Assembly (NCBI GenBank): GCA_034401795.1
Contig: CM067369.1
Location: forward strand, 92,401,241 to 92,465,240
Direction of reading: 5' to 3'
Source of the DNA: Chaetoderma sp. LZ-2023a
Taxonomy: Eukaryota > Mollusca > Caudofoveata > Chaetodermatida > Chaetodermatidae
DNA: 64,000 nucleotides
The position numbers were made by a program, and so were the translations under genes. Positions 629-62,647 of this stretch are shown piece by piece (position 1 is the first letter of the stretch; every line of letters starts with the position of its first letter). The notes under the pieces are model-generated. The model was not told where the DNA came from, did no database searches, and worked only from the letters and a program-made list of their open reading frames with translations.

Positions 629-670
629 ATGAGTATCACAGCAACACCAGCAAATAAACTGAGCAATAGT
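629..670 (-). CDS. aGPCR exon 16b/17: 42-nt TM7 microexon
   Basis: The acceptor is tatttttcag and the donor gtaagt. The exon has 14 codons, phase 0 at both ends: TIAQFICWCCCDTH. It extends the TM7 helix of exon 16, and the Q-F-I placement resembles the QG-F-F of family TM7. The Cys cluster at the membrane exit is unusual. It could be alternatively spliced, since removing it keeps the frame. The next exon was not identified with confidence. Confidence 0.7.
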
Positions 671-837
671 CTGAAAAATAAACAAATTGAAAAAGCTATA
701 AACGCTTAAAAAAGCCCCCAGAATAATGGTATATATGTATGTAAAGATTGACAAGTGACATCTACATGGGTAAGAATAAGAGATTACCACTTTCATGCCG
801 AAGCTGGCTAAACACGGCCTCTGCAGTGCTCTTGTGG

Positions 838-911
838 AATGTTCATTTGCAGGCCAAGAGAAGACTATTTTTGAAAATTTATCACTGTAATGACTGGCTC
901 GATAAATTTTC
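838..911. repeat. Family A foldback, half copy
   Basis: Only the left arm is present (tttgcaggccaagagaagac.. to ..atgactggctcg), followed by unrelated sequence. Confidence 0.7.
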
Positions 912-934
912 TTGATCAAATCTGCCCACTAAAG

Positions 935-987
935 TGTTACGTAATTATTGATTTAATTAATATTATAATCAATAATTACGTAACAAT
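935..987. repeat. Short perfect palindrome
   Basis: The arms are gttacgtaattattga and its reverse complement, around a short AT-only loop. The element is isolated and could be a minimal MITE remnant. Confidence 0.6.
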
Positions 988-1133
988 TAAATTGACATAT
1001 TTTTAACATGGAATATCCTGACTGAGCTCATTGCTGTAACTTAACATTTAGAGATGAATGCCATCAGGGTATGCTAAAATTAAAACAGAGAGCCGTCATT
1101 GAACTTAGGCTGCCAGCATTCTATGTCCTAGAA

Positions 1134-1372
1134 TAAATATGTACACATACTTGCATTATTATTAAATATTATATGAAAATGCAATTTATCAAGATTCAAA
1201 GTGACCGTCATTCTGAAATTGCATTTGTATTACACAATGATATGACATAAAAATCTACACATACTTGCATTATTATAAAATATTGTATGACGATGCAATT
1301 TATCAAGATTCAAAGTGACCATCATTCTGAAACTGCATTTGGATTACACAATGACGAGATAAAAATCAACAA
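1134..1372. repeat. Two-copy direct tandem repeat, about 118 bp per unit
   Basis: The block with acacatacttgcattatta.. and ..atcaagattcaaagtgacc is present twice, head to tail, with a few substitutions. Confidence 0.85.
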
Positions 1373-1617
1373 ACTGGATTTTCAAAAATTCAAGGCATTG
1401 ATATTTTTCCTATGCACCAAAAAATTGGCATGCTCATGAGGGCATCTGACTGTTCAAGATCCCCATGCCCTCCGTGATATTCAATTGCATTTGCATCAGG
1501 GCACACGCTAATTAGTTACAGCACTGCTGATCCTATCCATGATATGTTGCTCCCAACCACAATTGTCAGCAATTTTCAAGTGAGAATTATGGATAGGCTC
1601 AGTCAGGATATCCCTTG

Positions 1618-1830
1618 CTCAAGAAAATCGAAATATTTGTTTATTAAATGTCCATTTGCAGGCCAAAAGAAGACTATTTTTGGAAATTTACCACTGGAAT
1701 GACTGGCTCGGGTATTGAGCCAGTCATTCCAGTGATAAATTTCCAAAAATAGTCTTCTCTTGAACTGCAAATGGACACTCCTCAAGACCACTGCAGAGGT
1801 CGGTTTTGGTCGGCATGACCATTAAAATGA
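1618..1830. repeat. Family A foldback MITE
   Basis: Two arms of about 60 bp are near-perfect reverse complements meeting at ctggctcg..cgagccag. The arm reads from aatgtccatttgcag through ..actggaatgactggctcg. Confidence 0.85.
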
Positions 1831-1855
1831 AACATCAAATGTAATCAATACTCAC

Positions 1856-1982
1856 GAATAATAAAGTAAATAGTAAAAAGACAATGGATGGCGCTCCACT
1901 TTCTGGCATCTGTACAAGGCCAGCTAAGCACCCCCATATGAGCATTATCACTGTGAATGCTGGCGATTCTAAGATATGTACA
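1856..1982 (-). CDS. aGPCR exon 16: TM6, loop 3, start of TM7
   Basis: The acceptor is attacttttcag and the donor gtgagt. The exon has 1 nt plus 42 codons and ends in phase 0. It encodes VHILESPAFTVIMLIWGCLA (TM6), a short MPESGAP loop, and SIVFLLFTLLF (TM7). A second AG 14 nt inside was tried and rejected because it does not match the phase of exon 15. Confidence 0.88.
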
Positions 1983-2044
1983 CTGAAAAGTAATACAGGA
2001 AAAATGCTCTTAGAATAATATAATGCTGAAAATGAAAAAAAATC

Positions 2045-2261
2045 TTTAACCTTTTAACAGCCATATCAGCCAAAAACATCTTCTGCAGTGTTCTTGAGAA
2101 GTGTCCATTTGCCGACCATGAGACTATTTTTGAAAATTTACCACTGGAATGACTGGCTCGATAAACGAGCCAGATATTCCAGTGATAAATTTTCAAAAAT
2201 AGTCTTCTTGGTCTGCAAATGGACATTTTCTCAGAGGAAATTGAAATTCGAGGGGTGTTAA
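2045..2261. repeat. Family A foldback MITE
   Basis: Both arms are present (center near 2160). The flanks show the family's ctttaaccttttaa start and gtgttaa end. Confidence 0.85.
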
Positions 2262-3109: not shown

Positions 3110-3234
3110 CCACTCTTGAGTATAAAAGTAAAACACTGTGATACATACAGGTAATGTCGTCTGTGCTGCTGTATTTCTTTATTAGTCGTTGTAAGGAATG
3201 ATTTCAATGACAATACAAGCACCACAATGTGTAT
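3110..3234 (-). CDS. aGPCR exon 15: end of TM5, intracellular loop 3
   Basis: The acceptor is ctttttcag and the donor gtaaga. The exon has 41 codons plus GG. It encodes IHIVVLVLSLKSF then the basic loop TTTNKEIQQHRRHYLYVSQ and CFTFILKS. A nearer GT at about 3129 would break the frame with exon 16, whereas the chosen donor keeps it (GG plus T gives Gly). Confidence 0.87.
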
Positions 3235-5766: not shown

Positions 5767-5845
5767 CGCAATAATAACTAAAAGCGGAATGAGAATGGAC
5801 AGGAATTGAGCATTATACTGATGTACATCCTGTACAATGGAACAT
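5767..5845 (-). CDS. aGPCR exon 14: loop 2 Cys and TM5
   Basis: The acceptor is tttgcag and the donor gtaagt. The exon has 1 nt plus 26 codons and ends in phase 0. It encodes CSIVQDVHQYNAQF then LSILIPLLVIIA. The Cys is at the position of the conserved loop 2 Cys that pairs with TM3. The hydrophobic run with a central Pro fits TM5. Confidence 0.89.
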
Positions 5846-7975: not shown

Positions 7976-8060
7976 ATATGCGATGTATCATCAATCTTTT
8001 GTTGCTTGGACTTGGAGGTGAACACGGCTACATAACAGATTATTAGCACTGCACTACTGC
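7976..8060 (-). CDS. aGPCR exon 13: TM4 and loop 2
   Basis: The acceptor is tttctag and the donor gtaagc. The exon has 2 nt, 27 codons and 2 nt. G from exon 12 plus GC gives Gly. Then SSAVLIICYVAVFTS completes TM4 and KSKQQKIDDTSH begins extracellular loop 2. The trailing AT takes A from exon 14 to give Ile just before a Cys. Confidence 0.88.
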
Positions 8061-9351: not shown

Positions 9352-9502
9352 CCCAACCAAGGATAAAATATCTAAAGCCAAAGCCTTTATCTGTGCTATC
9401 ACAAAATAACGTCATGAATGTATACAGCGATTTGATCATCATAAATGACATCATTGCCAAATAGAAGAAATACACTAGCAGCCGTCCAATTGCACAAATC
9501 AC
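9352..9502 (-). CDS. aGPCR exon 12: TM3 to start of TM4
   Basis: The acceptor is ctattgtag and the donor gtaagt. The exon has 50 codons plus G. It encodes VICAIGRLLVYFFYLAMMSF (TM3; compare the HYFFLA pattern of the family), then a short loop and GFGFRYFILGW plus G, giving the conserved Gly-Trp-Gly of TM4. Several usual TM3 residues (His before Tyr-Phe-Phe, Trp, Glu-Gly) are replaced, so the receptor is divergent. Confidence 0.92.
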
Positions 9503-13791: not shown

Positions 13792-13894
13792 CTCAGTCTG
13801 TGATGCACTAAGGCAAAAGATTAGCATCACATTGACGATCAGCAAAGATGCACAGAAGTTCACCTGTACTATATACCGGTCACTGCTTAAATGC
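13792..13894 (-). CDS. aGPCR exon 11: loop 1 and TM2
   Basis: The acceptor is ttttatttcag and the donor gtacat. The exon has 1 nt plus 34 codons. It encodes HLSSDRYIVQVNFCASLLIV followed by NVMLIFCLSASQTE. The I-x-x-N-(F/L)-C-x-S-L-L pattern is characteristic of TM2 in class B/adhesion receptors. It ends in phase 0 and joins exon 12. Confidence 0.92.
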
Positions 13895-16634: not shown

Positions 16635-16741
16635 CTCCAAAATATCAAGTGTATTATCCCTGTCGCGATGGTACCACACATGCATAAAATACATGCTACC
16701 ATAGCAACTGTACTGGCATCAAATGATGACACAGATTTCAC
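16635..16741 (-). CDS. aGPCR exon 10: TM1
   Basis: The acceptor is catttcacag and the donor gtaaat. The exon has 35 codons plus AG and starts in phase 0, exactly as exon 9 requires. After VKSVSSFDAST it encodes one hydrophobic segment (VAMVACILCMCGTIATGIIH), taken as TM1. The AG pairs with the first G of exon 11 to give Arg. The 10.9-kb intron upstream holds DIRS element 1. Confidence 0.9.
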
Positions 16742-17936: not shown

Positions 17937-18293
17937 AATTATGTATTTCATATCTTTACTGTTATTAGTTATATGGGGACTGGGAGAAAGAATGGGTTAG
18001 CTCTTTAATTAAACGAAATCACGGATTTATTTTTTCACGAGAGAGTTGATACTTACCACCCTGATACTTTATGATATTTCCTAAATATCGATCTAGCTTC
18101 AATAATACTCAGAATTAAAAAGAAACCGCCCCCACTGGGCAGGTTACACAATTGACAGTCCAGCGGATGAGCAGCCCAAACTCGCCCATGCACGGGGCTG
18201 ACTCATTCTATTTCAAAATATTGGCCGACCTAATTGCAACATAAAACGCTGATAGACCGAGCCTCTGTGGGGTGGAGAGGCCGGGATCATATT

Positions 18294-18392
18294 AGGGTGG
18301 TAAGTATCAACTCTCTCGTGAAAAAAGAAATCTGTGATTTCGTTTATTTCACATCAAGAGTATACTTACCACCCTGATACTTTATGATATAG
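18294..18392. repeat. Element 1 internal complementary region (ICR)
   Basis: The left half is the reverse complement of the element's left terminus and the right half that of its right terminus, joined as gatttcgtttatttcacatc. This is the arrangement expected for DIRS1-type elements, where the ICR templates circle closure. Confidence 0.88.
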
Positions 18393-18778
18393 CCAGAATT
18401 CGTAAGAGAATTCGGCGGGAGGGAGGCGAAGGTCAGAAGACCAGCTCATCCCTGGAAGAGCAAACTTTTGCTTTTGGAGCACAACAAACATCTGAAATTG
18501 CGTATGTAAACACAATCAGGAAATGATTTGAACATCGGATAACACGACATCGGATAACACGACCGATGTTGAGAGTAATGACTGTTTCACATCCGCTCCC
18601 TCCCCCCTCTTTTAGAGGGAGCGATGACCTCAATGTCCTATACGCTCTCTATGTGCTCGTGCTAAAGTACTATAAGACGGGTAACAACAATGTACTGGGT
18701 CTGTTTGCTTATGGTGTGCATTTCGGCCCAGGGAAGGCGGTGAACCCTACCCTGCTTGGTTGATGCCTGTCGGCTCCA

Positions 18779-19453
18779 TTGTGTGGAGCTGGTGGATCCA
18801 GTGGCATTCTAACAGATGCTCTTTCCAAATTATGTACATATATGCCGGAAACCTGCCAATCTATAAATACAGATTCAGTATTCCAACATTGGAAACTATA
18901 CAAAGCACACGTGGACTCAGTACCCACTGGCTGCCCAGACACCAACAACAGTCAGGTACCATCACGGTCCTCACCACCTACGGCCTCCAATCCGGACAAG
19001 ATCACCAACATTAACAGCAACTCACCAGTCACCACACTGGATATTTTCTCGGCCTGTGATTCTAAATTAACAGAGACCCGCTCCACGACCAACATGAAAA
19101 CGAGCCCTTCAAGATCACCAGAATTCAGTGTAAGTGGGGCGTACAACAATCTGTACAACTCAAACTCTTTAAAACCAGTTTTAACCCCACATGACATCAT
19201 CTCTCCATTGCCGTCACCCGATCACCAAGAATATGACACGGTCACCAGACGGAATACAGACATTCTTGCGGCCAGCACCTTAATCACAGAACTAGCTTCG
19301 AGCCACCGCTTTAATATCAACTGTCTCCATTGCTACATTACAATTCAGAGCCAGAACTCAATAGCGCCGGACCCAAAATGGGATAGAATGATCGCCTTGA
19401 TGGGCAACATGTGTGCCCATATTGACTGGAGCCTGTCACATCTCCAGCTTTAG
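18779..19453 (+). CDS. Hypothetical protein in the nested insertion
   Basis: This is a 224-codon frame, Ser/Thr/Asn-rich in the middle (SPSRSPEFSV, ISPLPSPDHQEYD) and more ordered at the end (LITELASSHRFNINCLHCYI.., WDRMIALMGNMCAHIDWS). ATG is at the start. I do not recognise a family. A C-terminal Cys pair (CLHC) and helical tail could suggest a gag-like or DNA-binding role, but nothing proves it. It is preceded by in-frame sequence reaching back across ggcccagggaaggcggtga, so it may be a 3' exon. Confidence 0.4.
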   Translation: MCGAGGSSGILTDALSKLCTYMPETCQSINTDSVFQHWKLYKAHVDSVPTGCPDTNNSQVPSRSSPPTASNPDKITNINSNSPVTTLDIFSACDSKLTETRSTTNMKTSPSRSPEFSVSGAYNNLYNSNSLKPVLTPHDIISPLPSPDHQEYDTVTRRNTDILAASTLITELASSHRFNINCLHCYITIQSQNSIAPDPKWDRMIALMGNMCAHIDWSLSHLQL

Positions 19454-20329
19454 ATTTTCTACATTCCACCCGATACATTATACTGAGAACAACATCGTCA
19501 GAATAAAATAACTCGATACTATAAACGGACCTCCACCGGCTCGTGTTTGTGCTTATATTAAATACATTTTTTAATCTAAGGGGGCACTAAGCTCACCTGG
19601 CAGCAAGATTTTACGCTACATTCATTCTGTGATTATTGTGTATTCTTACCGGACTTTTCGGTGATGAGATTTCCTCAGGGACACCATGCTCACCTGGAAC
19701 CTTTCTATACAGTGTTTAAATACAGAAGCCCGTATAAAAAACTAACAGAAGGGGGCACCACGCTCCTAATTCTACAAGCCTTTGTGTTTTCTTTCCGTGC
19801 GCGCCCAGTGTTTACCACAAATTTTCATAGCCTTGAACTTCCACCCATGGGAGGGCAGGCTCACCTGGAACTTTTTCGTAAGGATGTGTGACTCGTGCCA
19901 CATCTTTATGACAATAACAAGCACGTATTGTTTAGTTGGACAAAACTATCTATCCATCTCCATCTATTTATTTTTTTTCTTATCTGTTTACTTATTTAAT
20001 TACTGATTCTCCCACTGTTCTTCCCATATCTAGCTGTCTGGCTACACTAAACAAAAAATATCCCTATTCATCACTTTCAATAAATCTTTTCCACAAAATT
20101 CTTCTACTTCTCTTCTTCTATTCAACCACCCACCCGACACCAACCAGCTCACCTGGAAGAGCGACCCTACCGCCCGGTCCCAGCAAGACCACCCCACCCA
20201 CCACTCCCCACCTGATGATTCCACATGTGATACAACATTTCACCTATAATATTTCCACATATGCCTCTGATGAGTTCCACTTTTGGAACGAAACGCCATA
20301 AGTCTGAATCAATAAATATGGTAATGACT

Positions 20330-20695
20330 ACACCGGTCAAAACCTCACAACAAATGGGCTACATACACCACCAGAACCCATCTATTCGCACGAACGCTAT
20401 AAAACTTAAGTGAAAACAAACATTCAGAATAGAACCGGTAAGAATTTTATAACAACCGGTAAACTAAAAAAATGGCAAAAGATTCCACAACCGCCAAAAA
20501 AAGTTTTAACCAAACCGCCAAAATAAAACCACAACCGGTAAAAGTTTCACAACCGGCGAAATAGATACAACCGGCAAAAATCACCACAACCGGTGAAAAT
20601 TACCTCAACCGGTAAAAACTGCCGGAGCCGCCATTTTGGACTTAACCGTCAAACTCACCAGAACCGGTGATCTTAGACCACAACCGCCAAAACCA
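20330..20695. promoter_or_regulatory. Cluster of AACCGG/AACCGCC motifs
   Basis: About 14 copies of (c/a)aaccgg(t/c) or aaccgcc occur in 365 bp, spaced roughly 15-30 bp, all in the same orientation. AACCGG resembles the half-site of Grainyhead/CP2 factors (AACCGGTT). That link is inference. The cluster ends about 75 bp before a TATA box. Confidence 0.5.
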
Positions 20696-20768
20696 TGCCG
20701 GCAATCCCAATTTTCCATACCCTTTTAAGGGTGTGTGAAAGCCAATCCCCAGGCTCAGCCCATGAGAG

Positions 20769-20777
20769 TATAAAAGG
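20769..20777 (+). promoter_or_regulatory. TATA box
   Basis: TATAAAAGG is followed 28 bp later by an initiator-like accattcag. It would drive plus-strand transcription out of the insertion, antisense to the DIRS genes and to the receptor gene. Confidence 0.5.
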
Positions 20778-21170
20778 AGCTGAAAAAGCAGCTTCTGACC
20801 ATTCAGACTTCTGGATACACAATCGCATTCAAGCGTCAGGCTTAAAAACCAAATTGGTCTATTTGTCACTGACTACGTCGTTATCACTCTCCAAAGTACT
20901 ATACAACATCGGACGAAAGCTTCATTTCGTATACTCTCAGATGGAACCACAAAGAACACAAAACCATCACCATTTTAGTAAGAAATATAAAAAACGTGAC
21001 AAAAAATAACCATCACCAAATATATGACTAACCTATTTTGACGCGATTCCCCTTTGACCACCGCTGGCGATGATAGGTAAAGTACGGAAAAGCAGGGATT
21101 CCCCCCACTAAACTGCACTGTGTGTGAGTCAACGGCCTTATGTAAAATATTTACAAATTTATATACAGAT

Positions 21171-37699: not shown

Positions 37700-37776
37700 T
37701 CTATCATTCAGTATACAGTTAAATTAGTTTTAAAATATTCAACAGCTTACCTGACACTGCATACTTTTCTGAAAAT
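37700..37776. repeat. Family D MITE, core end (split by element 3)
   Basis: It reads cagttaaattagttttaaa to catacttttctgaaa and continues at 44771. Confidence 0.85.
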
Positions 37777-38158: not shown

Positions 38159-38645
38159 AGAATTTGACAGGGAATTCGGCGGGAGGGAGGCGAGGTCAAA
38201 AGACCAGCTCTTCCCTATGCGCTTTTCTGCGTCATGATTTGAAAAACTTCGGCTAACACAAACCGATGGATGAGAGATGACCGAATGTCATATGCGAACC
38301 CCCACCCCACCACCCCTGGGAGGAAGACTCGAATGACCTCAATGTCCCATACGCTCTCTACATACAAGTGCCATGTACTATAGGACAAGAGACGAAAAAG
38401 CTCCATTTTCGTATACTCTCAAAGATGAACCACATAAAAACACATACCATCACCATTTTAATAACAAAGGGTCACGTGACAATACAATTAACAACACATA
38501 AACAAGACTGACCTTGTTGAACTTGGCTGCTGACATCATCTTCCCAGTGGTGAAGGTTGATGCAGTCCCAAAAAGTGGTTGTTCCCATTAATTAATTGTG
38601 ATATATACAAGTAATGAGGAATCCTCATCAAAAAAGTACACCTGA

Positions 38646-43668: not shown

Positions 43669-44433
43669 CTGAAACAGGGCAGAAGACGAGCACAATGAGT
43701 ATTTTAGTTAAGGTTAGAAACTCAAAACCAAAATAAAAGAGAGGAAGAAAATGATCATAAAGATCACTTATCAATATGAGAAACCAGCGTTGGACAAAAC
43801 TTTAAATGTTAATAAAGAGCAAGGCTGATTATGATGTCATATTTTCAAGAAAGAAATTAAATCGATCCGAAACAAACATCCAGGTGTAAGGACGAATTGT
43901 ATTCATATCCAGAACATCTAACTAGGAAGGATAGATATTCGGGCTACACAAACATCAGATACACAATGATAATAGTGGCAAAAGTTTACATAATTATTAT
44001 CACCTCATATCATTAACTAGAATACCTGATTCTTTGTATAGACAAACCATCCAATCTGATGAACTGGAACACTCCACCAAGACTATGACCTCTTAACTCT
44101 CTCCACCTTAGGGGAAAGGGAATTGGATCAAGAGGGCAAAGTGAGAAGACCTTCTTACGAGGCCTCCGAGTCACTGGACATAGACTTTTTGGTTAGATAA
44201 CCTAACAGTATTAGTAGGAAATGGAACCTCGGTGGAGAGAAACAAACCCTCTGTTGATGTGATGTCCCATACATATCCAGACAGATACCTGTGGACATAA
44301 ACACAAAGAGAGATTAGCATTATATAGCGCCATGTTGAAATAAAACAACTATACTAGGCACATATCACGATAAATGCGAGTCCCAGAAACACAATACACC
44401 GGGAAAAACTCGCTAAATTATAATAGAAGTCAC

Positions 44434-44484
44434 ATGATGGATAGATCCTGGGCCCTCCTCCGGCGAAGTAATCCTATCTGCCAT
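44434..44484 (-). CDS. DIRS element 3 gag exon 1
   Basis: Seventeen codons, MADRITSPEEGPGSIHH. The last codon is CAT rather than CAG, so the exon side of the splice donor is weakened. Confidence 0.65.
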
Positions 44485-44770
44485 CTTAATCAGGGGTTCT
44501 AGACTTCTATAAACACTTAAAAGGACTTGAAAAACTTGAGAAAAGCTCTAAGCACAAAAAACATGTGTAGCCCCTCTGGCAATAAATTAGCAAAGAGGAA
44601 GTGCTAGTCTGCGCATGCGCGGTGGTGGGGCTGGCATCCGCCGGACTGCCCTCTGACTCCCTGCCCAGTAGGGGCACCTAACTGTTTTAATATGAGTGTT
44701 TATTGAGTGAAAGCCGATATTTAGCAATATCAAAGAGTATTAGGGCGGTAAGTATACTCTTGAAGTGAAA

Positions 44771-45197: not shown

Positions 45198-45312
45198 TTG
45201 TGTGTGCGGCAGAGTGAATGTAATATTGAGCATTGAGTGTTTCATCTCCCTCTCTTGGCCAGTCAATAACAATAAGTCTGAGATAATTGGCCCGGACGTC
45301 TCACTCAGTACC
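45198..45312 (-). CDS. aGPCR exon 7: end of GAIN beta-sandwich
   Basis: The acceptor is tatctttcag and the donor gtaata. The exon has 1 nt plus 38 codons and ends in phase 0. It encodes VLSETSGPIISDLLLL.. and ..HSMLNITFTLPHTQ. The LNITFTLPH string matches the strand before the GPS in GAIN domains and contains a possible glycosylation site (NIT). Exon 8 continues with the first GPS Cys-x2-Trp. DIRS element 3 lies in the intron that follows. Confidence 0.89.
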
Positions 45313-46649: not shown

Positions 46650-46773
46650 CGCTTTCGCTTGAGAAAGCTTGCCATATCGCCAATGACCACAGCAGTTAGA
46701 CTGACGCTGTTGTTTTGTGACTGATCAGTAATTAGTTTCAATGGATCCGGAGTAATTTGAGTGCCACCAAATA
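46650..46773 (-). CDS. aGPCR exon 6: GAIN subdomain B
   Basis: The acceptor is atttcag and the donor gtatgt. The exon has 2 nt, 40 codons and 2 nt. It encodes FGGTQITPDPLKLITDQ and, after a possible NNS glycosylation site, VSLTAVVIGDMASFLKRK, which reads as beta-strands. The final CG plus G from exon 7 gives Arg. Confidence 0.87.
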
Positions 46774-47599: not shown

Positions 47600-47716
47600 C
47601 TGTATATTTTCTGTCGTCATTTGGAACATGCCAATGTACAGCATTAATCTGCCATGACAATCTGTTTTCATAAATGTCACTGGCTATGCTCGATGTGTTG
47701 ACAAGCATGCAGTAAT
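47600..47716 (-). CDS. aGPCR exon 5: GAIN region
   Basis: The acceptor is gactacag and the donor a strong gtaagt. The exon has 2 nt, 38 codons and 1 nt. It encodes YCMLVNTSSIASDIYENRLS and WQINAVHWHVPNDDRKYT, a mixed alpha/beta stretch with one possible N-glycosylation site (NTS). The trailing G joins TA of exon 6 to give Val. Confidence 0.86.
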
Positions 47717-48601: not shown

Positions 48602-48704
48602 CGATATGTGAATACTTCTGGCAGACATTATAAGGCTGGTAGAGAGTTGTAGTTGATCCGACCAGTAACGCCATCTTCATAACCTCCTCCGGTACCTTCA
48701 AATC
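48602..48704 (-). CDS. aGPCR exon 4: GAIN region
   Basis: The acceptor is tgacag and the donor gtgagt. The exon has 34 codons plus 1 nt. It starts in phase 0 with DLKVPEEVMKMALLVGS and ends ..CQKYSHI, the last G completing an Asp codon with exon 5. No domain could be named from this exon alone. Its place in GAIN follows from the in-frame neighbours. Confidence 0.86.
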
Positions 48705-48986: not shown

Positions 48987-49163
48987 AACACTTTAACCCT
49001 CATATCCGCCAAAAATGGTTTCTGCAGTGATCCTAAAAAATGTCCATTTGCAGACCAAAAGAAGATTATTTTAGAAAATTTACCACTGAAATGACTGGCT
49101 CGATAACCGAGCCAGTCATTTCAGTGGTAAATTTTCAAAAACAACCTTCCCTTGGTCTGCAAA
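48987..49163. repeat. Family A foldback, cut by DIRS element 4
   Basis: It starts ttaacactttaaccctcat. Both arms are complete up to ttggtctgcaaa, where the DIRS left end begins. The expected right flank (tggacattt..) is not found intact at 56249. Confidence 0.85.
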
Positions 49164-49448
49164 TAAACGAAATCAAGGATTTCTTTTTTCACGAGAGAGT
49201 TGATACTTACCTCCCTAATACTTTTGATATTGCTAAATATCGGCTTTCACTCAATAAACACTCAGAATAAAAACAGTTAGGTGCCCCTACTGGGCAGGGA
49301 GTCAGAGTGTAGTTCGGCGGATGCCAGACCCACCACCGCGCATGCGCAGACTAGCACTTCCTCTGACTAATTTATTGGCTGACACACATGCAACTATTAA
49401 GAGCCTGAAGACCGAGCCTCTGTGGGGTGGAGAGGCCGGGTCCGTATC

Positions 49449-49549
49449 TAGGGAGGTAAGTATCAACTCTCTCGTGAAAAAAGAAATCCTTGATTTCGTT
49501 TATTTCACTTCAAGAGTATACTTACCTCCCTAATACTTTTGATATTGCC
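49449..49549. repeat. Element 4 ICR
   Basis: It joins the complements of the left (ccttgatttcgttta) and right (tttcacttcaagagta) ends. The left variant is shared with element 2 and the right variant with element 3, as in this element's own termini. Confidence 0.92.
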
Positions 49550-50089
49550 AGAATTCGACAGGGAATTCGGCGGGAGGGAGGCGAGGTCAAAAGACCAGCT
49601 CTTCCCTATACGCTTTTTCGCGTTTACGGCACTTAAACTTCTGAAACTGTGTGAAAACACAGTCAGGATTTGACAAACCATCGGATAACACAAACCGATG
49701 TATGAGAGATGACCGAATGTCATATGCACTACCCCCCACCCCTTCCTGGGAGGAAGACTCGAATGACCTCAATGTCCCATACGCTCTCTACGTACAAGTG
49801 CCATGTACTATAGGACACAGACGAAAAAGCTCCATTTTCGTATACTCTCAATAATGAACCACATAAACACACAAACCATCACCATTTTAATAACAACGGG
49901 TAACGTGACAATACAATCAACAATCGATAACACATGACCAAGACTGACCGTGTTGACTTAGCTGCTGACATCATCTTCCCAGTGGTGAAGACTGATGCAG
50001 TCCCAAAAAGTGGTTGTTTCCATTAATTAATTGTGAAATATATAAGCAATGAGGAAACCTCATCAAAAAATGTACACCTAGTTATTTTT

Positions 50090-51100
50090 TCAAAATCGAC
50101 AAGGCGAGAGGATTAGAGGTGTCACGGAGATAATGGTCTGTAAAACTTGACTCACAGTGCCACTGAGCAACCGACATAATGTCATTCACAGGGACCCCAT
50201 TAAATAGGGCAGTGGATGTCACTACGCCGCGGACACTGTGAGCCTTGGCCATGTCAACCTGCTTCCCCAGTGGCTGATTTATGACAAAACTGAATACATT
50301 CTACAATCCACCTGGAAATGGTGTCCTTAGACGCCCTGCCATGGGGTTCAATATATGACAACCATAACGCTGACTGGTCGGTCCGCCACTCCGATGTACG
50401 TTGTTTGTACCGGAGCAGCGCCCGGACGGGACACCATGCTTTAGAATTAGGATCATATCTAGTTAAAGCTGGCAAAAAAATAGGTTGACCTGGATATTTC
50501 AAAGACTGATTCTTAGCCAAGAATTTAATCCTAGGTAGCAGCTTAAGGCCTTCCCCTGTAACCACAAAACGGTCTTCCTCGGCTGATAAGGCATGAATTT
50601 CAGTCCTACGCCTAGCCGAGGCCGCAGCAATTAAAAATACAGTTTTAAGAGTTAACAGTTTCATAGAAATGGAACTAAGTGGTTCAAAAGGCTTATCTCC
50701 TAGTACCTGAAGCACTAGAGATAAACTCCAAGATGGAATCACTGGGAGATTCCTTGGTCTTAGATTGCCCATGCCTTTAATTAATACATTTAATGTACTT
50801 ACTTCATCACTCCCCCTATTAGCCAAGCAAGGGATAACAGTCATTAAAGCTGATTTATAACCAGCAATAGAGTTAGGCTTGCGGCTATAGGCATCATACA
50901 GGTGACAGAGGAAATCAGCCACTACCTGAATAAATGAATCCATTGGATCAATACATCTTTTTGAGCACCACTCTGCAAATCTGTTGATTTTATAATTATA
51001 TGCTCTGACCCCCTCCTGGCTTTGGCCATAAACATGGCTGCTTGCTCAGAAAAGCCCTCCTTAATTCTAGATTCCTTGACAACATCCGCGCAGTCAATCG
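50090..51100 (-). pseudogene. DIRS element 4 tyrosine recombinase, frameshifted
   Basis: The stretch from DSFIQVVADFLCHLYDAYS to CHKSATGEAG is open (50943-50254), with box I ARRRTEIHALSAE. A small insertion near 50265 shifts the frame before HSVR and the Tyr box. The N-terminal link to RNase H has a further deletion near 51006. Confidence 0.85.
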
Positions 51101-53115
51101 GAACATTGACGGATTGTTGTGAAGGGCCTTGCCCTGGAAGATAATGTCGTCCATCAGAGGCAGAGGAACCGGATTGCAGACCAGAAGGTCCAGCAGATCC
51201 GTATACCATGATCGGCTTGGCCAATCTGGGGCGATCAGAAGCACTTGGCACTCCTGTCTGATTTTCTGAAGAATTTTTGGAATCAGGATTGCTGGAGGGA
51301 ATGCGTATGCATACATTCCCACCCAGCTGATAGCTAATGCATCTGTTGCGAAAGCGCTTGGATCTGGAATCGGAGAGACGTACGTCGTCATCTTCGCCTT
51401 CTTCTTCGTTGCGAACAAATCGATGTTGGGTTTCCCCCAATGGACGATCAATGTCCCATCAGACGATCCGCTACACATTGATTTAGTTGCCATTCCGTCG
51501 GTAAAACACTCATTCTTCGGCTCAATGAGTCTGCTAGCAGATTTAACCTTCCCGGAATATGAACTGCTTTCAAGGTAATCCTGTGATCCAGGCACCAACA
51601 AAGCAGTCTCCATGTCATCATACAGAGACTGGGCGACTTCGTTCCGCCCTGGCGGTTTATGTAAGTCACAGCTGTTGAGTTGTCTGAACGAATAAGTACA
51701 ATCTTGCCCTGAACTTTCTGTAAGAAATGTTCCAGGCCCAGGACTACTGCTCTTAGCTCCAGTAGATTGATATGTTCCTTTGACTGTTCCAGATTCCAAA
51801 GCCCTGATATCGTGGATTCTTCCAGGCAAGCTCCCCACCCCTCCATCGAGGCATCTGTATACACAGTCACCTGAGGGTGGGGAGGGGTTAGCATAACCCC
51901 CCACCCCCAAGAGATTCTCTGTCTTCAACCACCATTGCAGGTGGTGAATTAGAGGCGCAAACACTGACACATTCGAGTCCAGCGAACCTGTACTCTGGGT
52001 CCATTGTGTCATGAGAAATAACTGGATCGGCCGCCTGCATAAGGCGGCCTGAGGAATGACTGGTTCCAAAGAAACCATCAACCCCAGAATCCTCAAGTAA
52101 ACCCGTGCCAGGACATGACGATTGTCGCACAGTGACTGTATTACTGAGATGAGTCTCTGAACCCTCTCCTGAGTAGGATAAACATATCCCGTCTCTAGAT
52201 CGAAGAACATGCCCAGGTAAACAAACTTCTTGGATGGAGTCAGCTCTGATTTCTGGAAATTGATTATCCAGCCCAAGTCTGTGAGAGTCTTCAAAACAAT
52301 CTCCAGATTGGCCGATAAACTTTCCTGGGTGTGTTCTTTTAACAGCCAGTCGTCTATGTACGTGTGGACTGCTATGCTTCTCCTGCGGAGGTATGCGGTG
52401 ATCGCAAGAACCACCCAGGTGAAAACCCGAGGAGCCGTGGAAATTCCGAAGGGTAACACCCTGAATTCCCACTGTCTGCCCTGGAATGCAAATCTCAGGA
52501 AGCGACAGAAACTCCTCGCTATGGGGATGTGGAAATAAGCATCCTTCAAATCTATTGAAGCTGTCCATATTCCCTTCTCCAACCCCGCCAACACCGAGCG
52601 CACAGTCTCCATCTTGAAACTGGGCGTCTCTATGAACTTGTTCAACGGCTTGAGGTTGAGAATAGGTCTCCACCCTCCGTTGTTTTTTGTTACTAAGAAC
52701 ACGGTTGAATAGAAGCTTTGTGCCGGCTGAATCGCTCCTTTTTGTATGAGGGAGTTTATCTCCTCGATACACAACCTTTGCTCTGGATCTCTCGGATTCG
52801 GAGTCCAGATTGGCACCAGAGACAGCCACGATGGCGGGCCTGTCATCCAATCGGGATGATACCCGACTGAAAGCCATCGCAAGACTAAACGGTCTTGAGT
52901 CAACCACTCCCACTCTTGCATGTGGTCGGCCAACCGGCCTCCCACCGGTCCACCTAGGGAGAGAGGTGGACATAAGGAGTGCAAGAGTGGCACTGTCTCC
53001 TTTGCCAGACACACCGGAGTGGTTCTCACCGCGGTAACCGGCCCATCAGGCACGATTACCACGACCAGATCCTCGCGCGCCATGCTGGTCACCGCGGTAA
53101 CCGGCCCATCAGGCA
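51000..53115 (-). pseudogene. DIRS element 4 RT-RNase H, frameshifted
   Basis: RT motifs SIDLKDAYFHIPI, LPFGISTAP and YIDDWLLKEHT (near 52345) are in the first frame, with small in-frame losses upstream. Extra bases near 51900 shift RNase H (YTDASMEGWGACLE, LLELRAVVLG, IRSDNSTAVTYIN). A rearranged 11-bp stretch near 51450 causes another break. Confidence 0.88.
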
Positions 53116-55156
53116 CGATTACCATGACCAGATCCTCGCGTGCCATGCCCAGCACCGCGTGCACCGAGGTGCGCGGGTGGCTGCCTGGCTGACTGCGCCT
53201 GAGGAGCCTGCGGCCCCCTCACTGCTGGCCGAATCGCACGCGGCTGAGGCCGACGCTGCGATGGTGGCTGGCCTCTGACCTGGCCACCACCACCTCGAGC
53301 CTGCAGGGGACGATACGCAGGGGGTGCCGCGCAAACGCGCTCCCTACGGAGCACTTCAAACTGCTCGCCCAGCGCCCTCTGGTTATTGACCAGAGTAACC
53401 GTCTCCTGGAGGTGCCTACATCCCTCACCTCCAAAGAGACCAGGACCTGTTATAGGCGTACACAGTAGCCTATTGTACAGGTCTTGGGACGGGCACAGGT
53501 TATCCAAGGCAAACATGCGCCTCGCCCGGACACTCCTGGTCACCGCCCGAGTCATACAGTCCAGAGCCAGGTTGATACCATCCTGGATGGCTCTCTGGAC
53601 TGTGACCAGGCTCGGTTGGCGCAATGCGGATGCTGTTACTACCCCCTGTAACAGCTGGGAGACGTGGGACAGAGCCGCAATAGAAGCTCTCCCACTCTCC
53701 TCCGCATCACGCAACGCAGCATTTGCCGAACGCAATGTGTTCGAGCACAAAGCTCCCGTGTCAGAACGGGAGCCTGGCCGCGCATCCTCGCCCAAAGCCG
53801 CGCGGTTATCCACGCTAGGCTTGGGCACCACACCGCACCTCTGGTAATCCACGGCCACGATGCGGCAGCGCCTTGCTACCTCGCGAGGGGCCTTCGCGAG
53901 ACGCCCATTCGCCTTAATGGACGTCTCCGCCGCCGAGAACATATCCACGATATGCTCTGCTAATGGCAGAGATGGCATAGCGCTAGCAGTCGCCTTACCA
54001 GCTAACCACGGCCTGTGGTCTCGCTGGCTAGCAGACTGCTCCACGGGCAGGTCTGGCCTAACACTTATCAGCCATTGACAAGCGTCAGACCAATCCTCCT
54101 CCGTGGCTAACTGCGAGTGCTCTACTAGACGAGGGCCTTCGTCTTCCTCCTGAGCACACGCAGCAGAGCTTGATGGCGGATACGCTGACACTCCTGGCAA
54201 GCCAGAGAAACCATGCGCGCCCGAAAGAGCAGGCATGGTAATCTGACTGGCCTGTCCAGGAGCAGGCGCCGTGGTAGAACGCGGGGTAGCAACCGCCCCA
54301 CCACGGCCCCGGCCAGCACCAGCAATACTCTCGGCAAGCCGAGGTATGCGGAACAGCTGACCATCAGCAGCGACCAGGGCCACCTTATGAGCCGTGAATT
54401 CTACTCCTGCATGAGTAGAACCATGGATCATGTCGCCTGTATTCACCGCGAGGGGTGCACAGACCTCAAAATCCATGGCCACGTCTTCAGACGGCGATCC
54501 TAACAGATAATCCTCATCTTCCTGGCCAGAAAGATTAGACTCCGGGTCAGCAAAGAGAGCTAACCCGGACTGGCCAGAAAAGGTGCCATAGGAGGTACTG
54601 GCACCTGCGGCGTGCAGATACCCCTGGGCTGATAAGCAGCCAGCAGGTTCCAGCGACAGCCGTCCACGACCCCTCTGCGCGGCAAGCCTGCTGCCAGAGT
54701 CGTGGAATGCCCCCACTAATGGGGCCACCTCTGAATCCTCGAAAACTGGTAGCGGCCTAAGGAAACCGGATTCAGAGGCGGGGATTATCTGCTCCGAAGC
54801 AGATGATGAGGACAACAAAGGATTTGGTCCAGGAAGCATGCCAGGAAGCAACTCTGGAACCAAATCCTTTATTGTCCTCTTCATCTCTCCCAACATCTCA
54901 CTACGGAAGGCCTCCATGTCCACTGAGGATGAGGACTTCCTCTTACCCTTCTTACTCACAACCTCTCTTTTTTGCTTCCTCTCCTCCTCCAAAACCTTGT
55001 CCTTACGCTGCAAGCATAAAAATTCGGTCATTATCTCGCCCCCCAATGCTTACATACGTCACAATTGAGCAATGGCCCACAGAGGCTACAATGAAAGCAA
55101 AGATGCGGGATGAACTTTTCTTTCAGAAAACGCCCACAGGACGAGCAACCAGGTCT
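53109..55156 (-). pseudogene. DIRS element 4 gag, main exon, one-base deletion
   Basis: The Cys cluster (CSSCGRF, CFHCSLCGPLLNCDVC) is read from the acceptor at 55157. One G is missing in the run at about 55040 that element 2 reads as HWGGE, giving an early stop. The remaining 645 codons are uninterrupted, with all gag regions of element 2. Confidence 0.86.
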
Positions 55157-55911
55157 CTGAAACAGGACAGAGGACGAGGACAATGAGCAATTTAGTTAAA
55201 GTTAGAAACTCAAAACCAAACTAAAAGAGAGGGAAATGATCATAAGGATCACTAATCATCTGAAACCAGCGTTGGACAAAACTTTAATTGTTAATAAAGA
55301 GCAAGGCTGATTATGACGTCATTAATCCCATGACAGAAATTAAATCGACCCGAAACAAACAACTATGTGTAAGGACGAATTGTATTCATAACCAGAACAT
55401 CTTCAGGATAGATATTCAGACTACACAAACATCAGATACACAATGATAACAATGGCAATTACAGTTAAAAATAATTAACATCACATCATATCATTAACTA
55501 GAATACCTGACACTTTGTATAGACAAACCATCCAACATGATGAACTGGAACACTCCACCAAGACTACGCCTCTTAACTCTCTCCACCTTAGGGGAAGGAA
55601 TTGGATCAAGAGGGCAAAGTGAGATGCCCTTCATACGAGGCCTCCGAATCACTGGACATAGACTTTCTGGTTAGATAACCTAACAGTATTAGTAGGAGAT
55701 GGAACCTTGGTGGAGAGAAACAAACCCTCTGATGCTGTGATGTCCAATACATATCCTGACAGATACCTGTGGACATAAACACAAAGAGAGATTAGTATTA
55801 TATAGCACCATGTTGAAATAAAACAACTACACTAGGCACTTATCACGGTAAACGCGAGTCCCGGAAACACATTACACCGGGAAAAACTCGCGAAAATATA
55901 ATAGAAGTCAC

Positions 55912-55962
55912 CTGATGGATAGGTCCTGGGCCCTCCTCCGGCGAAGTCACTCTCTCAGACAT
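55912..55962 (-). CDS. DIRS element 4 gag exon 1
   Basis: Seventeen codons, MSERVTSPEEGPGPIHQ, end CAG at a gtgact donor and join the Cys-cluster exon in phase 0. Confidence 0.7.
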
Positions 55963-56462
55963 TACAACAGGTGTTACAAACTTCTATAAACTGCTTAAAA
56001 TTGACTTAAAAGACTAGTGAAAAGCGTAGAGCACAAAGCATGTGTTCACCCTCTGCCAATAAATTAGCAAAGAGGAAGTGCTAGTCTGCGCATGCGCGGT
56101 GGTGGGGCTGGCATCCGCCGGACTGCACTCTGACTCCCTGCCCAGTAGGGGCACCTAACTGTTTTTATTCTGAGTGTTTATTGAGTGAAAGCCGATATTT
56201 AGCAATATCAAAGAGTATTAGGGAGGTAAGTATACTCTTGAAGTGAAAACAATACATCTTTGTCCTTTTGCAGTGTGAGGATAATGACCTTATTAACTGA
56301 TAGTTATGTCTGAAAGCCTGTCAAAACGAATAGTCAACATTCTATTTTATATTCATTACAAGATAATGATGCTTTGTCTAGACGCATGATGACCTTTTAC
56401 AGCCAGGCATGTATGCCATACCCAAAATGACACGTGGTCATTCCTTCATCTATTGGTGTGTA

Positions 56463-57498: not shown

Positions 57499-57564
57499 CT
57501 TGATTTCCTCTTCAGTAGCCTTGGATGTAGAACTCAGAACATCATTGATTATCTTAAACACAAT
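57499..57564 (-). CDS. aGPCR exon 3: GAIN helix
   Basis: This is a 22-codon exon in phase 0 at both ends, with acceptor ctgatcag and donor gtaata. It encodes IVFKIINDVLSSTSKATEEE plus IK, a helix followed by an acidic turn, typical of GAIN subdomain A. It is separated from exon 4 by an 8.8-kb intron that contains DIRS element 4 and four family A foldbacks. Confidence 0.86.
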
Positions 57565-60445: not shown

Positions 60446-60589
60446 GAGTGGCAAGGGTTAAAAGGCTAATGATATTTTATGACAAATGGTTGTGATATTC
60501 AGGTACAACAGTCCATCAGTAAGACTAGCCAGCGACCTCATCACCTTATCAGAATAGCATGATGTGAGAAAATGCTGTGACAAGACTAA

Positions 60590-61005
60590 TGGTGGGATCC
60601 ATTTCCACCTATGTACCGCCCATTCATAGCTAAGCTCCGCCAATTTTGTATGCATATTTGAATCGATTTATACACCTCAGACCTTGAATTCCCAGAATCT
60701 CCACATCAATGTAATTATAAAGATAGATTGTTGAACATTTTGTAATTAATTTGACTGGAAGCTGTTGCTGCCTATCGCAGCAACAGCTTCAAGTCAAGTT
60801 AATTTTCAAAATATTCAACAGAATGTTTATTAAATTGTAAATTCCCGAAAGACAGACAATTCATACACTTCCGTGACAAACTGTTCAACTTCATGATGGA
60901 CTTATGTAATCTTGATTCTGACGTCAACTCAAACATGACATGTTTTTATTATGACGTTAGATAATTGAGTGACAGATCAGACACCGCCATTGCTTATTGC
61001 ATATT
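60590..61005. repeat. Family D MITE
   Basis: The copy has gtaccgcccattcatagc, a core at 60729-60825 (tgttgctgcctatcgcagca center), ttattaaattgtaaattcc, and a ttgattctgacgtcaac end. Confidence 0.82.
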
Positions 61006-61044
61006 AACCCTTTGCTGTCTGTAACGGACCACGCCGCCCAGTTC

Positions 61045-61350
61045 ACTCCAGACTATAATGTCCCCCCACCACCCCATACATTACCAATGGCAATGACAAC
61101 ATTTTTCCTGCAAGAGTATTCTCCCTTTAGTCTGTCTTATGCAGGCATATTTGTGCTGTGAAATTTACGTGGTACCAGTATACGCATTGAAGTAATTTTA
61201 AGAAGATTGGCAGCTTGCCCACCCGCCAGATGCAGTAATAAAAAAATCGCCACAGGGTATATGGATATATAATTTATAATCACATAGAATTGTCAGATAT
61301 ACCATTGGTAATGTATGGGGGCAGTCTAGACCATTACAGTCTGGATTGAG
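61045..61350. repeat. MITE-like element with long imperfect TIRs
   Basis: The left end has ccagactataatg and ccccatacattaccaatgg; the right end has their reverse complements ccattggtaatgtatgggg and cattacagtctgg. About 200 bp lies between. No other copy in the window. Confidence 0.7.
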
Positions 61351-61628
61351 CATAGACGTAAGTTCACTTATTTCATCAAAAAATCTTTTATGAATTTGAG
61401 GAAAATGTAAAATTTAGGAAAAGTTTTGAAAATTAATTTAATCCACACAGAACATTTCGCAAATATATTAAGGCATGAAAGTGAAAGGGTTAATGTGTCG
61501 ACGACCGTCACAGAGACACTAGCTGGTGGTTTGTTAAGATCACTTGTCTTAAAGAACCACTATCTTTGCTCTTCAAGAGCCAGGTGGTCACTTCAGTATC
61601 TTTATTTTCCCATTATACCACTACTGAC

Positions 61629-61823
61629 CTCTAATGGGACATCACTAGCCAATGAATGCAGGTTGGAATTCCAGCTTTGTTCCACAATGTCGCGCAAAAT
61701 AGACATTATCAGATTGAGATCACCGATGAAAAGCTTGTTATTGTTTGTATTGACAAAGTAGCAGAGATCAGCGAATATCTGGTCGATACTCTGAATCAAG
61801 TAACCAAGGCGGAGATACTGCAA
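61629..61823 (-). CDS. aGPCR exon 2: GAIN subdomain A (helical)
   Basis: The acceptor is gttacag and the donor gtcagt. The exon has 65 codons, phase 0 at both ends, and is the longest exon seen. It encodes amphipathic helices (LGYLIQSIDQIFADL, GDLNLIMSILRDIVEQSW), as expected for the helical first part of a GAIN domain. It runs straight into exon 3 as ..SDVPLE then IVFKIINDVL.., which keeps the helical pattern. It lies alone between the 61.3-kb MITE and an AC-rich tract. Confidence 0.87.
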
Positions 61824-61849
61824 CTGTAACATAACAAGAAAGAATATTG

Positions 61850-62111
61850 TACATAAAGAAAAGAAGTCGTCGGCTAGTTACACACACACATACACTCACT
61901 CACTCGCTCATGCACCAGGGCACAATCTATCCCGTATCGCATCTCAATTTGCTACACATATTTAGGCCAGTGTTAAACATTCTGCATAGCCTAATCTGCT
62001 ATGCAAAATCTTTATGTGATTGCAATTTAGCATTGATTTTCAAAAGTTCTATCATTAACCCTTTCAGCGACTAATCCCTGAAAAAGTAAATTCTTTACAA
62101 TGTATAGCATA
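61850..62111. other. Intron: nothing recognised
   Basis: A short acacacac/tcactcact tract near 61880; otherwise unique. Confidence 0.4.
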
Positions 62112-62208
62112 TTCTGTTGAATAGTTTGAAATTAATATGACTGGAAGCCATTGCTGCCTAAGGCAGCAATGGCTTCCAGTCAAATTAATTTCAAATTATT
62201 CAACAGCT
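62112..62208. repeat. Family B palindrome
   Basis: The arms gttgaatagtttgaaatt.. and ..aatttcaaattattcaac flank a perfect ccattgctgcctaaggcagc center. Confidence 0.85.
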
Positions 62209-62359
62209 ATTCCTATTTGTTTGCTCTGCGATTGAGATGCAGGGAATTTATCTATGAAAGAGTTAATTGCTATACATTTTTGCTGACAACTATGCAATTT
62301 ATAATTCGCATAGCAATTCATGCTATGCAAATATTAACTTCTAAATTATGCTCTGTCTG

Positions 62360-62480
62360 TGCACAAGCATGCACACACGTACACATCAAAACACACATGC
62401 ACGCACGCACACACACACACACACACACATAACACTTACATATGCGCGCACACATATGCATACATGCATGGAAGCATACA
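62360..62480. repeat. (AC)n-rich tract
   Basis: Imperfect acacacac and catgcatgca repeats downstream (gene sense) of exon 1. Confidence 0.9.
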
Positions 62481-62513
62481 CGTACACATTCCATAGCCTT
62501 ATTCTTCATTTAC

Positions 62514-62647
62514 CTGCAATGAGATCCACAACGGTGCCTGTGAGGTACACTTAACAAAGTTAGCATCAGCCCACTGACACGGAGGCGATCTATCTGGGAT
62601 ACACTCACAGTGACGCTTGGCCAGGTGATAATATAAATTTCCTCCAC
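62514..62647 (-). CDS. aGPCR exon 1 of those visible: Cys-rich ectodomain
   Basis: The exon is preceded by ttggcag and followed by gtaaat. It begins with 2 nt of a split codon and ends in phase 0, giving 44 full codons. Cysteines occur as HCEC, PPCQW and VKC, a spacing that could be the end of a hormone-receptor-motif-like domain ahead of the GAIN domain. That assignment is inference. The exon ends ..WISLQ and joins exon 2 in frame. The preceding exon was not found in the last 1.35 kb of the window. Confidence 0.82.

What the first reader, a model, noticed from the sequence alone, without database searches (positions are those of the whole stretch)
629..62647. A hidden adhesion GPCR gene of 17 very small exons across 62 kb
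No single reading frame reveals this gene. It appears only when short minus-strand blocks with AG/GT borders are chained. All 16 junctions agree in codon phase and the order of GAIN, GPS and TM1-7 parts is correct. Several class B positions are substituted (TM3 V-Y-F-F for H-Y-F-F, no E-G), so it may be an unassigned, divergent subfamily.
Basis: partly seen in the sequence, partly recalled or inferred. Interest (0 to 1): 0.85.

Follow-up and report, generated by a model that had tools for sequence, protein, structure and literature searches.

The report
Divergent adhesion GPCR gene, probably uncleaved
The stretch holds most of an animal gene for an adhesion G-protein-coupled receptor, split into ordinary small exons by introns swollen with retrotransposons; the receptor is strongly diverged and probably cannot cut itself as many of its relatives do, but it is a new member of a known kind.

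Summary
Observation confirmed. It beats chance without homology (chain score 69.6; plus strand 12.9; 100 shuffles at most 48.1) and with it (unguided spliced alignment to human ADGRL3 211.2; two sets of 100 shuffles at most 136.9 and 155.0). The chain matches Pfam GPS (8.7e-8) and solved ADGRL3 (7.5e-19) and ADGRD1 (2.1e-12): an adhesion GPCR with GAIN-like region, GPS and TM1-7, open at both ends. Its 7TM part has no Pfam 7tm_2 match even at E 10, where ADGRL3 scores 268.8 bits. The H-X-S/T self-cleavage triad reads G-L-G, so it is probably uncleaved (inferred). The four longest introns carry DIRS1-like retrotransposons, which explains much of the 62-kb span. Exon sizes (42-195 nt) are ordinary for animals. 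Subfamily, species and expression could not be tested: no animal sequence collection answered. New member of a known kind; modest interest.

The parts
62514..62647 (-). exon 1 of the model: end of a HormR-like module (CECIPDRSPPCQWADANFVKCTS); the reading frame enters in mid-codon, so the gene continues upstream
   Evidence: AG/GT, open; weak alignment of residues 25-133 to solved BAI3 HormR-GAIN (6.2 bits); in the homology-free chain
61629..61823 (-). exon 2: GAIN subdomain A-like (NNKLFIGDLNLIMSILRDIVEQ)
   Evidence: weak BAI3 alignment
57499..57564 (-). exon 3: GAIN-like (IVFKIINDVLSSTSKATEEEIK)
   Evidence: weak BAI3 alignment
48602..48704 (-). exon 4: GAIN region, no sequence match of its own
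   Evidence: one of only 3 candidates between exons 3 and 7 at both splice cut-offs, in phase
47600..47716 (-). exon 5: GAIN region, no sequence match of its own
   Evidence: donor score 8.7
46650..46773 (-). exon 6: GAIN region, no sequence match of its own
45198..45312 (-). exon 7: GAIN subdomain B-like (NITFTLPH aligns with ADGRL3 PVVFTVKH); least certain exon
   Evidence: homology at its end; donor score -0.9; rival exon 46576-46435 preferred by splice score alone
37334..37392 (-). exon 8: CVKW, equivalent of the GAIN C-x-x-W strand before the GPS
   Evidence: recovered exactly by unguided spliced alignment and homology-free chain
27659..27788 (-). exon 9: GPS motif (GYWMDDGC...TKCLC-SGLG-TYAVMH); the H-X-S/T triad reads G-L-G
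   Evidence: Pfam GPS; exact; PDB alignments
16635..16741 (-). exon 10: TM1
   Evidence: hydrophobic 350-383; ADGRL3 alignment
13792..13894 (-). exon 11: TM2 (RYIVQVNFCASLLIVNVMLIF)
   Evidence: ADGRL3 alignment; donor recovered
9352..9502 (-). exon 12: TM3, ICL2 and start of TM4 (CAIGRLLVYFFYLAMMSFMMIKS ... FILGWG)
   Evidence: exact; ADGRL3 alignment
7976..8060 (-). exon 13: TM4
   Evidence: ADGRL3 alignment
5767..5845 (-). exon 14: ECL2 cysteine and TM5 start
   Evidence: ADGRL3 alignment
3110..3234 (-). exon 15: TM5 end, ICL3 and TM6 start
   Evidence: partly ADGRL3 alignment
1856..1982 (-). exon 16: TM6 (keeps W at 6.53), ECL3 and start of TM7
   Evidence: exact in unguided spliced alignment; MAFFT alignment
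629..670 (-). exon 17: TM7 end; ends at a GT donor, so the C-terminal tail continues in an exon not identified
   Evidence: in the homology-free chain at penalty 6
49156..56249 (-). DIRS1-like retrotransposon D inside intron 3
   Evidence: self-comparison; inverted terminal repeats 94.7% over 189 columns and internal complementary region
37768..44770 (-). DIRS1-like retrotransposon C inside intron 7
   Evidence: RT PF00078 4.9e-22 in its ORF 38646-41591
29762..36748 (-). DIRS1-like retrotransposon B inside intron 8
18007..26118 (-). diverged, incomplete DIRS1-like copy A inside intron 9 (pieces 18007-18678 and from 21186 on)
   Evidence: about 81% to the others over 3.0-3.4 kb; no long inverted-terminal-repeat pair found

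Best explanation
The window covers most of a working animal adhesion GPCR (class B2) gene on the minus strand: 17 internal exons encode the end of a HormR-like module, a GAIN-like region, a GPS and seven transmembrane helices. Shown: the exon chain, the GPS, and relationship to ADGRL3/ADGRD1 over GPS to TM5. Inferred: the receptor is made as one uncut chain, because the catalytic H-X-S/T triad reads G-L-G, so neither the histidine base nor the hydroxyl nucleophile is present. The ectodomain binds a partner on a neighbouring cell or matrix, and the last GAIN strand (GTYAVMH in place of TxFxxLM) acts, if it acts at all, as a tethered agonist in place, exposed reversibly by pull or partner binding and read by the kept tryptophan 6.53. 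Because the helix positions H2.50, E3.50, G6.50 and G7.50 are substituted, coupling to G proteins is probably weak or unusual. The gene is long because DIRS1-like retrotransposons sit in its four longest introns.
For: 17 of 17 exons with AG/GT, 0 stops in 620 codons, 16 of 16 junctions in phase. Homology-free chain 69.6 against 12.9 (plus) and at most 48.1 in 100 shuffles. Unguided ADGRL3 spliced alignment 211.2 against at most 136.9 and 155.0 in 100 shuffles each. GPS 8.7e-8 on the chain, 1.2e-4 unguided. PDB: 20 distinct chains at E 0.1 or better, 18 adhesion GPCRs and 2 class B1 (GIPR) at 0.068-0.07; best ADGRL3 7.5e-19, ADGRD1 2.1e-12, BAI3 5.6e-5. 7TM part alone: 10 of 10 listed hits are adhesion GPCRs, best 1.1e-7. 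Seven hydrophobic segments in order. Conserved cysteine at TM3 start and in ECL2, and W in TM6. GPS reads C-L-C-S-G-L-G-T-Y-A-V-M-H. Role of H-X-S/T and that 10 of 32 human aGPCRs lack it: PMC13062082, Introduction read. TxFxxLM, W6.53, G6.50/G7.50: PMC13197933, section 9 read.
Against: No Pfam 7tm_2 match even at E 10 and no Pfam GAIN match at E 1. TM6-TM7 are not covered by any PDB alignment. GAIN subdomain A support is weak (6.2 bits); exons 4-6 rest on splice sites and phase alone; exon 7 has a rival. First and last exons of the gene not found. No transcript, no orthologue: protein searches of the chain and of alignment A1 gave no hit, and viral contigs gave none, but these collections seem to hold no animal aGPCRs, so this says little. 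The numbering H2.50/E3.50 is recalled, not from a call.
Confidence: 0.85

Rival explanations
1. The locus is a recently inactivated adhesion GPCR pseudogene: still open and spliceable, but no longer constrained, which would explain the many substituted core residues.
For: No 7tm_2 match; substitutions at the GPS triad and at TM2, TM3, TM6 and TM7 key positions; four retrotransposon copies in its introns.
Against: 0 stops and no frameshift in 620 codons over 17 exons with intact splice sites. At about 25% identity to ADGRL3 unconstrained drift throughout would have broken the frame. Conserved cysteines, W and GPS frame remain.
Confidence: 0.08
2. It is a fast-evolving orthologue of a named subfamily (ADGRL, ADGRB or ADGRD) rather than an unassigned one.
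For: Best 7TM matches are ADGRL3 and ADGRD1. The GPS neighbourhood TKCLC..L.T.A is closest to BAI3 TKCLCDRLSTFAIL and the best GAIN-GPS hit is BAI3 (3.2e-6). A HormR-GAIN layout is shared with ADGRB and ADGRL (layout recalled).
Against: The pieces point to different subfamilies; identities are 20-26%. No lectin, olfactomedin or thrombospondin module lies in the window, but the N-terminus is missing.
Confidence: 0.3
3. The chain is a chance string of short open blocks.
For: 17 exons were chosen from many candidates, partly by eye; the unguided alignment and the homology-free chain each also picked blocks outside my model.
Against: Both null tests beat all of 100 shuffles in each of three sets; GPS found unguided; ADGRL3 7.5e-19.
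Confidence: 0.01
4. The receptor signals normally through G proteins by a tethered agonist, using different residues at the substituted positions.
For: Hydrophobic Stachel-like strand (Y3, V5, M6) and W6.53 kept. PMC13062082 (passages) argues that Stachel-dependent signalling is possible without cleavage.
Against: G6.50 and G7.50 are absent; E3.50 is K; H2.50 is Q.
Confidence: 0.35

Closest known systems
ADGRL3 (latrophilin 3), class B2
   Same: Order GAIN end, GPS, TM1-7; aligned over residues 275-532 at 7.5e-19; TM3 and ECL2 cysteines, TM2 R..N.C.SL, W in TM6
   Different: 25-26% identity; GPS triad G-L-G for H-L-T; L-E-G is I-K-S in TM3; H is Q in TM2; no G at 6.50 or 7.50; no Pfam 7tm_2 match
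ADGRB3 / BAI3 HormR-GAIN domain (4dlo)
   Same: Best hit of the N-terminal part (3.2e-6); W...F..C.S and GDL...ILR stretches; GPS context TKCLC; also an uncleaved receptor in the crystal (PMC13062082, Introduction)
   Different: Triad is R-L-S there and G-L-G here; subdomain A similarity only 6.2 bits
ADGRD1 (GPR133)
   Same: Second-best receptor over GPS-TM5, 2.1e-12
   Different: 20% identity; canonical H-L-T at its GPS
Lineage-specific invertebrate aGPCRs with HRM/GPS (amphioxus, sponge)
   Same: aGPCRs outside the vertebrate groups, some with hormone-receptor modules or without a GPS, are reported in PMC2246102 and PMC4302439 (passages)
   Different: No sequences of these were available here to compare
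DIRS1-like retrotransposons (for the insertions)
   Same: RT, weak tyrosine-recombinase N-terminal match, inverted terminal repeats and internal complementary region
   Different: Not compared with a named DIRS family; only listings of DIRS papers were seen

Membership tests
Adhesion GPCR (class B2) | GPS motif before TM1 | tested here: met
   Pfam PF01825 8.7e-8, 33 bits against cut-off 22.5, in the chain, spanning exons 8 and 9; 23 bits in the unguided scan
Adhesion GPCR (class B2) | GAIN domain around the GPS | tested here: inconclusive
   BAI3 HormR-GAIN in one stretch 25-339, 5.6e-5, but most signal is the GPS; subdomain A 6.2 bits; no Pfam GAIN match at E 1
Adhesion GPCR (class B2) | Class B-type seven-helix domain | tested here: met
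   Seven hydrophobic segments; ADGRL3 1.1e-7 over TM1-TM5. Against: Pfam 7tm_2 not matched at E 10, ADGRL3 control 268.8 bits; TM6-7 not covered by a PDB alignment
Adhesion GPCR (class B2) | H-X-S/T self-cleavage triad (common, not required: 10 of 32 human aGPCRs lack it) | tested here: not met
   G-L-G at the aligned positions
Adhesion GPCR (class B2) | Stachel consensus TxFxxLM | tested here: inconclusive
   GTYAVMH: Y for F and M for L, no T and no final M (consensus from PMC13197933 section 9)
Adhesion GPCR (class B2) | W6.53 toggle; G6.50 and G7.50 | tested here: inconclusive
   W aligned; G6.50 is M; G7.50 is T in the MAFFT alignment or F if the glutamines are matched by hand
Class B1 (secretin) receptor | No GPS; hormone-binding ectodomain directly before TM1 | tested here: not met
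   A GPS is present; B1 receptors appear only as 2 of 20 weak PDB hits
ADGRL, ADGRB or ADGRD subfamily | Position in a 7TM tree with animal aGPCRs | not testable with these tools
   No animal aGPCR sequences reachable; protein searches returned none
Functional gene | Transcript and purifying selection | not testable with these tools
   No RNA data, no orthologue; genome search did not complete
DIRS1-like retrotransposon (intronic copies) | RT, tyrosine recombinase, inverted terminal repeats, internal complementary region (definition recalled) | tested here: met
   RT 4.9e-22 in copy C; recombinase only by sub-threshold SAM-like match (17.0 against cut-off 22.3); terminal repeats 93-95% and complementary pieces in 3 of 4 copies

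The most novel reading that the evidence does not exclude
An animal lineage has a functional adhesion GPCR that has lost both halves of the classical mechanism, the self-cleavage chemistry (G-L-G triad) and the conserved helix-breaking and polar core residues of class B, while keeping the GPS fold, the extracellular disulphide and the toggle tryptophan: a tension-bearing adhesion receptor that signals, if at all, by an unclassified route, and whose 7TM domain falls below the Pfam 7tm_2 profile so that profile-based counts of aGPCRs miss its kind.
Probability: 0.25. Interest if true: 0.5.

Novelty: new member of a known kind. Interest (0 to 1): 0.3.

Why it matters
If expressed, it is a natural case of an aGPCR without the cleavage triad and with a strongly altered core, useful for asking what such receptors do without self-cleavage. 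In practice its 7TM domain is invisible to Pfam 7tm_2 although related to ADGRL3, so counts of aGPCRs by that profile can be low in diverged lineages. It also shows how retrotransposon-filled introns spread a 1.9-kb coding stretch over 62 kb.

Tried and rejected
Regular-expression search for GPS and TM motifs in single frames gave mostly noise, but pointed to the TM3 block. First spliced-alignment setting (intron penalty 8) scored 351.2 (plus strand 250.6) with micro-exons of 1-30 nt and was discarded before any shuffle; penalties 18 and 24 were shuffled, 30 was not.

An extra exon 46576-46435 in place of exon 7 was considered: better splice scores, but exon 7 ends in NITFTLPH, which begins the ADGRL3 alignment. 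A last exon in 1-628 and a first exon in 62648-64000 were looked for by eye only; none was accepted.

Homologue searches: chain (530 candidates) and alignment A1 (217 candidates) gave no hit at 1e-3; because A1 contained human ADGRD1 and ADGRL3 pieces, I read this as a lack of animal aGPCRs in that collection (inference). Viral contigs: 420 pattern matches, 0 confirmed. NCBIfam: 0. Rfam: 0 at gathering score; tRNA: 0. A DIRS recombinase ORF in phages: no match. Other Pfam rows (for example DUF1634 0.0081-0.016 on the 7TM part) lie below their curated cut-offs and were taken as chance.

Not done: structure prediction.


Full report
WHAT WAS CHECKED. The finding names a chained minus-strand gene from 62647 to 629 but lists no exons. 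I rebuilt it. A Pfam scan of the minus strand outside the retrotransposon cores, in three frames with stops read as X (27 translations), gave one match above a curated cut-off, the GPS motif, at E 1.2e-4 in its stretch, in a block with clean splice sites. Working outwards with splice-site scores and aGPCR resemblance gave 17 exons: 62647-62514, 61823-61629, 57564-57499, 48704-48602, 47716-47600, 46773-46650, 45312-45198, 37392-37334, 27788-27659, 16741-16635, 13894-13792, 9502-9352, 8060-7976, 5845-5767, 3234-3110, 1982-1856, 670-629. They hold 1,862 nt; from the third base on they read 620 codons without a stop, and all 16 junctions agree in phase.

IS IT MORE THAN CHANCE. Because exons were picked from many candidates, three tests were made that do not depend on my picks. 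First, the best-scoring open and phase-consistent AG/GT chain, with no protein template and the retrotransposons masked, scores 69.6 on the minus strand, 12.9 on the plus strand and at most 48.1 in 100 dinucleotide shuffles (mean 20.0, SD 7.8); 11 of its 26 exons are in my model, and 13 of 21 at a stricter penalty, which was not shuffled. Second, an unguided spliced alignment of human ADGRL3 (GAIN end to TM7) scores 211.2 on the minus strand and 79.5 on the plus strand; 100 shuffled DNAs reach at most 136.9 and 100 shuffled templates at most 155.0. At penalty 24 the figures are 176.2, 53.3, 96.8 and 110.9. At penalty 18, 4 of its 9 blocks are exactly my exons 8, 9, 12 and 16, one shares the donor of exon 11, and 4 are not in my model. 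Third, between exons 3 and 7 exactly three candidates pass both splice cut-offs of 1.5; they are exons 4, 5 and 6 and they fit in phase one after another. Weak spots: exon 7 (donor -0.9; a rival exon 46576-46435 has better splice scores), the lack of sequence matches for exons 4-6, and both open ends.

WHAT IT IS. On the chain Pfam gives GPS at 8.7e-8 (33 bits, cut-off 22.5) and no other family above its cut-off. Against solved structures, 20 distinct chains match at E 0.1 or better: 18 adhesion GPCRs (best ADGRL3 7.5e-19, ADGRD1 2.1e-12, BAI3 5.6e-5) and 2 GIPR chains near 0.07. The 7TM part alone matches ADGRL3 at 1.1e-7 over TM1-TM5, and all 10 listed hits are adhesion GPCRs. The N-terminal part matches BAI3 best (3.2e-6), mostly through the GPS; the HormR/GAIN subdomain A piece itself gives only 6.2 bits. 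14 of its 17 listed hits are adhesion GPCRs, the other 3 (0.26-0.86) look like chance. Hydropathy gives stretches that fall into seven segments in the right order, and four N-glycosylation sequons lie in the GAIN region. So this is an adhesion GPCR gene, open at both ends: exon 1 starts in mid-codon and exon 17 ends at a donor.

HOW DIVERGED. The chain is 20-26% identical to ADGRD1 and ADGRL3 over the aligned part. Pfam 7tm_2 does not match its 7TM domain even at E 10, while the ADGRL3 control scores 268.8 bits. In the alignment the TM3 and ECL2 cysteines, the TM2 R..N.C.SL stretch, G-W-G of TM4 and the TM6 tryptophan are kept. H in TM2 is Q, W-M-F-L-E-G of TM3 is F-M-M-I-K-S, and the glycines of TM6 and TM7 named in PMC13197933 (section 9) are absent; the last depends on how TM7 is aligned, but G is missing either way. 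The GPS reads C-L-C-S-G-L-G-T-Y-A-V-M-H against C-S-C-N-H-L-T-N-F-A-V-L-M. The position numbers 2.50 and 3.50 are recalled.

HOW IT PROBABLY WORKS. PMC13062082 (Introduction) states that the histidine of H-X-S/T is the base and the S/T hydroxyl the nucleophile, and that 10 of 32 human aGPCRs lack the motif. With G-L-G both are missing, so I infer an uncut receptor. The same paper (passage) argues that an uncut receptor could still use its Stachel reversibly. The strand here keeps aromatic and aliphatic positions and the receptor keeps W6.53, so an in-place tethered agonist under mechanical or partner control is my leading reading. Loss of the class-B core residues makes ordinary G-protein coupling doubtful. 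None of these steps is shown; only anatomy and relationship are.

WHY 62 KB. The four longest of the 16 introns (3, 7, 8, 9: 8,794, 7,805, 9,545 and 10,917 nt) each hold a DIRS1-like retrotransposon, all in the gene's orientation. Three are near-complete, 7.0-7.1 kb (49156-56249, 37768-44770, 29762-36748), with inverted terminal repeats 93-95% identical and an internal complementary region; the fourth is diverged and incomplete. Copy C has an RT match at 4.9e-22; recombinase and Dam-like matches are below cut-off. The three near-complete copies account for about 21 kb.

WHAT COULD NOT BE TESTED. The genome search did not complete. The protein collection returned nothing even for an alignment holding human ADGRD1 and ADGRL3 pieces, so it appears to lack animal aGPCRs. 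Species, subfamily, paralogues, selection and expression stay open.

VERDICT. Real, and correctly recognised as an adhesion GPCR by a reader without tools; the exon sizes and intron-split structure are ordinary, the divergence is real. Diverged, lineage-specific aGPCRs are already described in invertebrates (passages of PMC2246102 and PMC4302439). New member of a known kind; interest 0.3.

Noticed in passing
window 29762-36748, 37768-44770, 49156-56249, about 18007-26118: Four DIRS1-like retrotransposon copies, all in the sense orientation of the receptor gene, in its four longest introns; three keep inverted terminal repeats and an internal complementary region.
   Followed up: partly
window 38646-41591 (-): A 981-aa open frame in DIRS copy C with an RT domain (4.9e-22) and a sub-threshold recombinase SAM-like match; it may be intact.
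   Followed up: partly
window 22053-22676 (-): A 207-aa frame in DIRS copy A gives a sub-threshold match to Dam adenine methyltransferase (0.0015, 18.7 bits against cut-off 28.1).
   Followed up: no
window 7724-7962 and others (families D1, D2): A dispersed 160-240-nt repeat family, 8 copies (D1) and 10 copies (D2) at 61-87% identity; at least one copy (7498-7935) is self-complementary, so MITE-like.
   Followed up: no
window 28309-29333: Block of overlapping tandem duplications in intron 8 (68-78% identity) that yields repeated short open frames.
   Followed up: no
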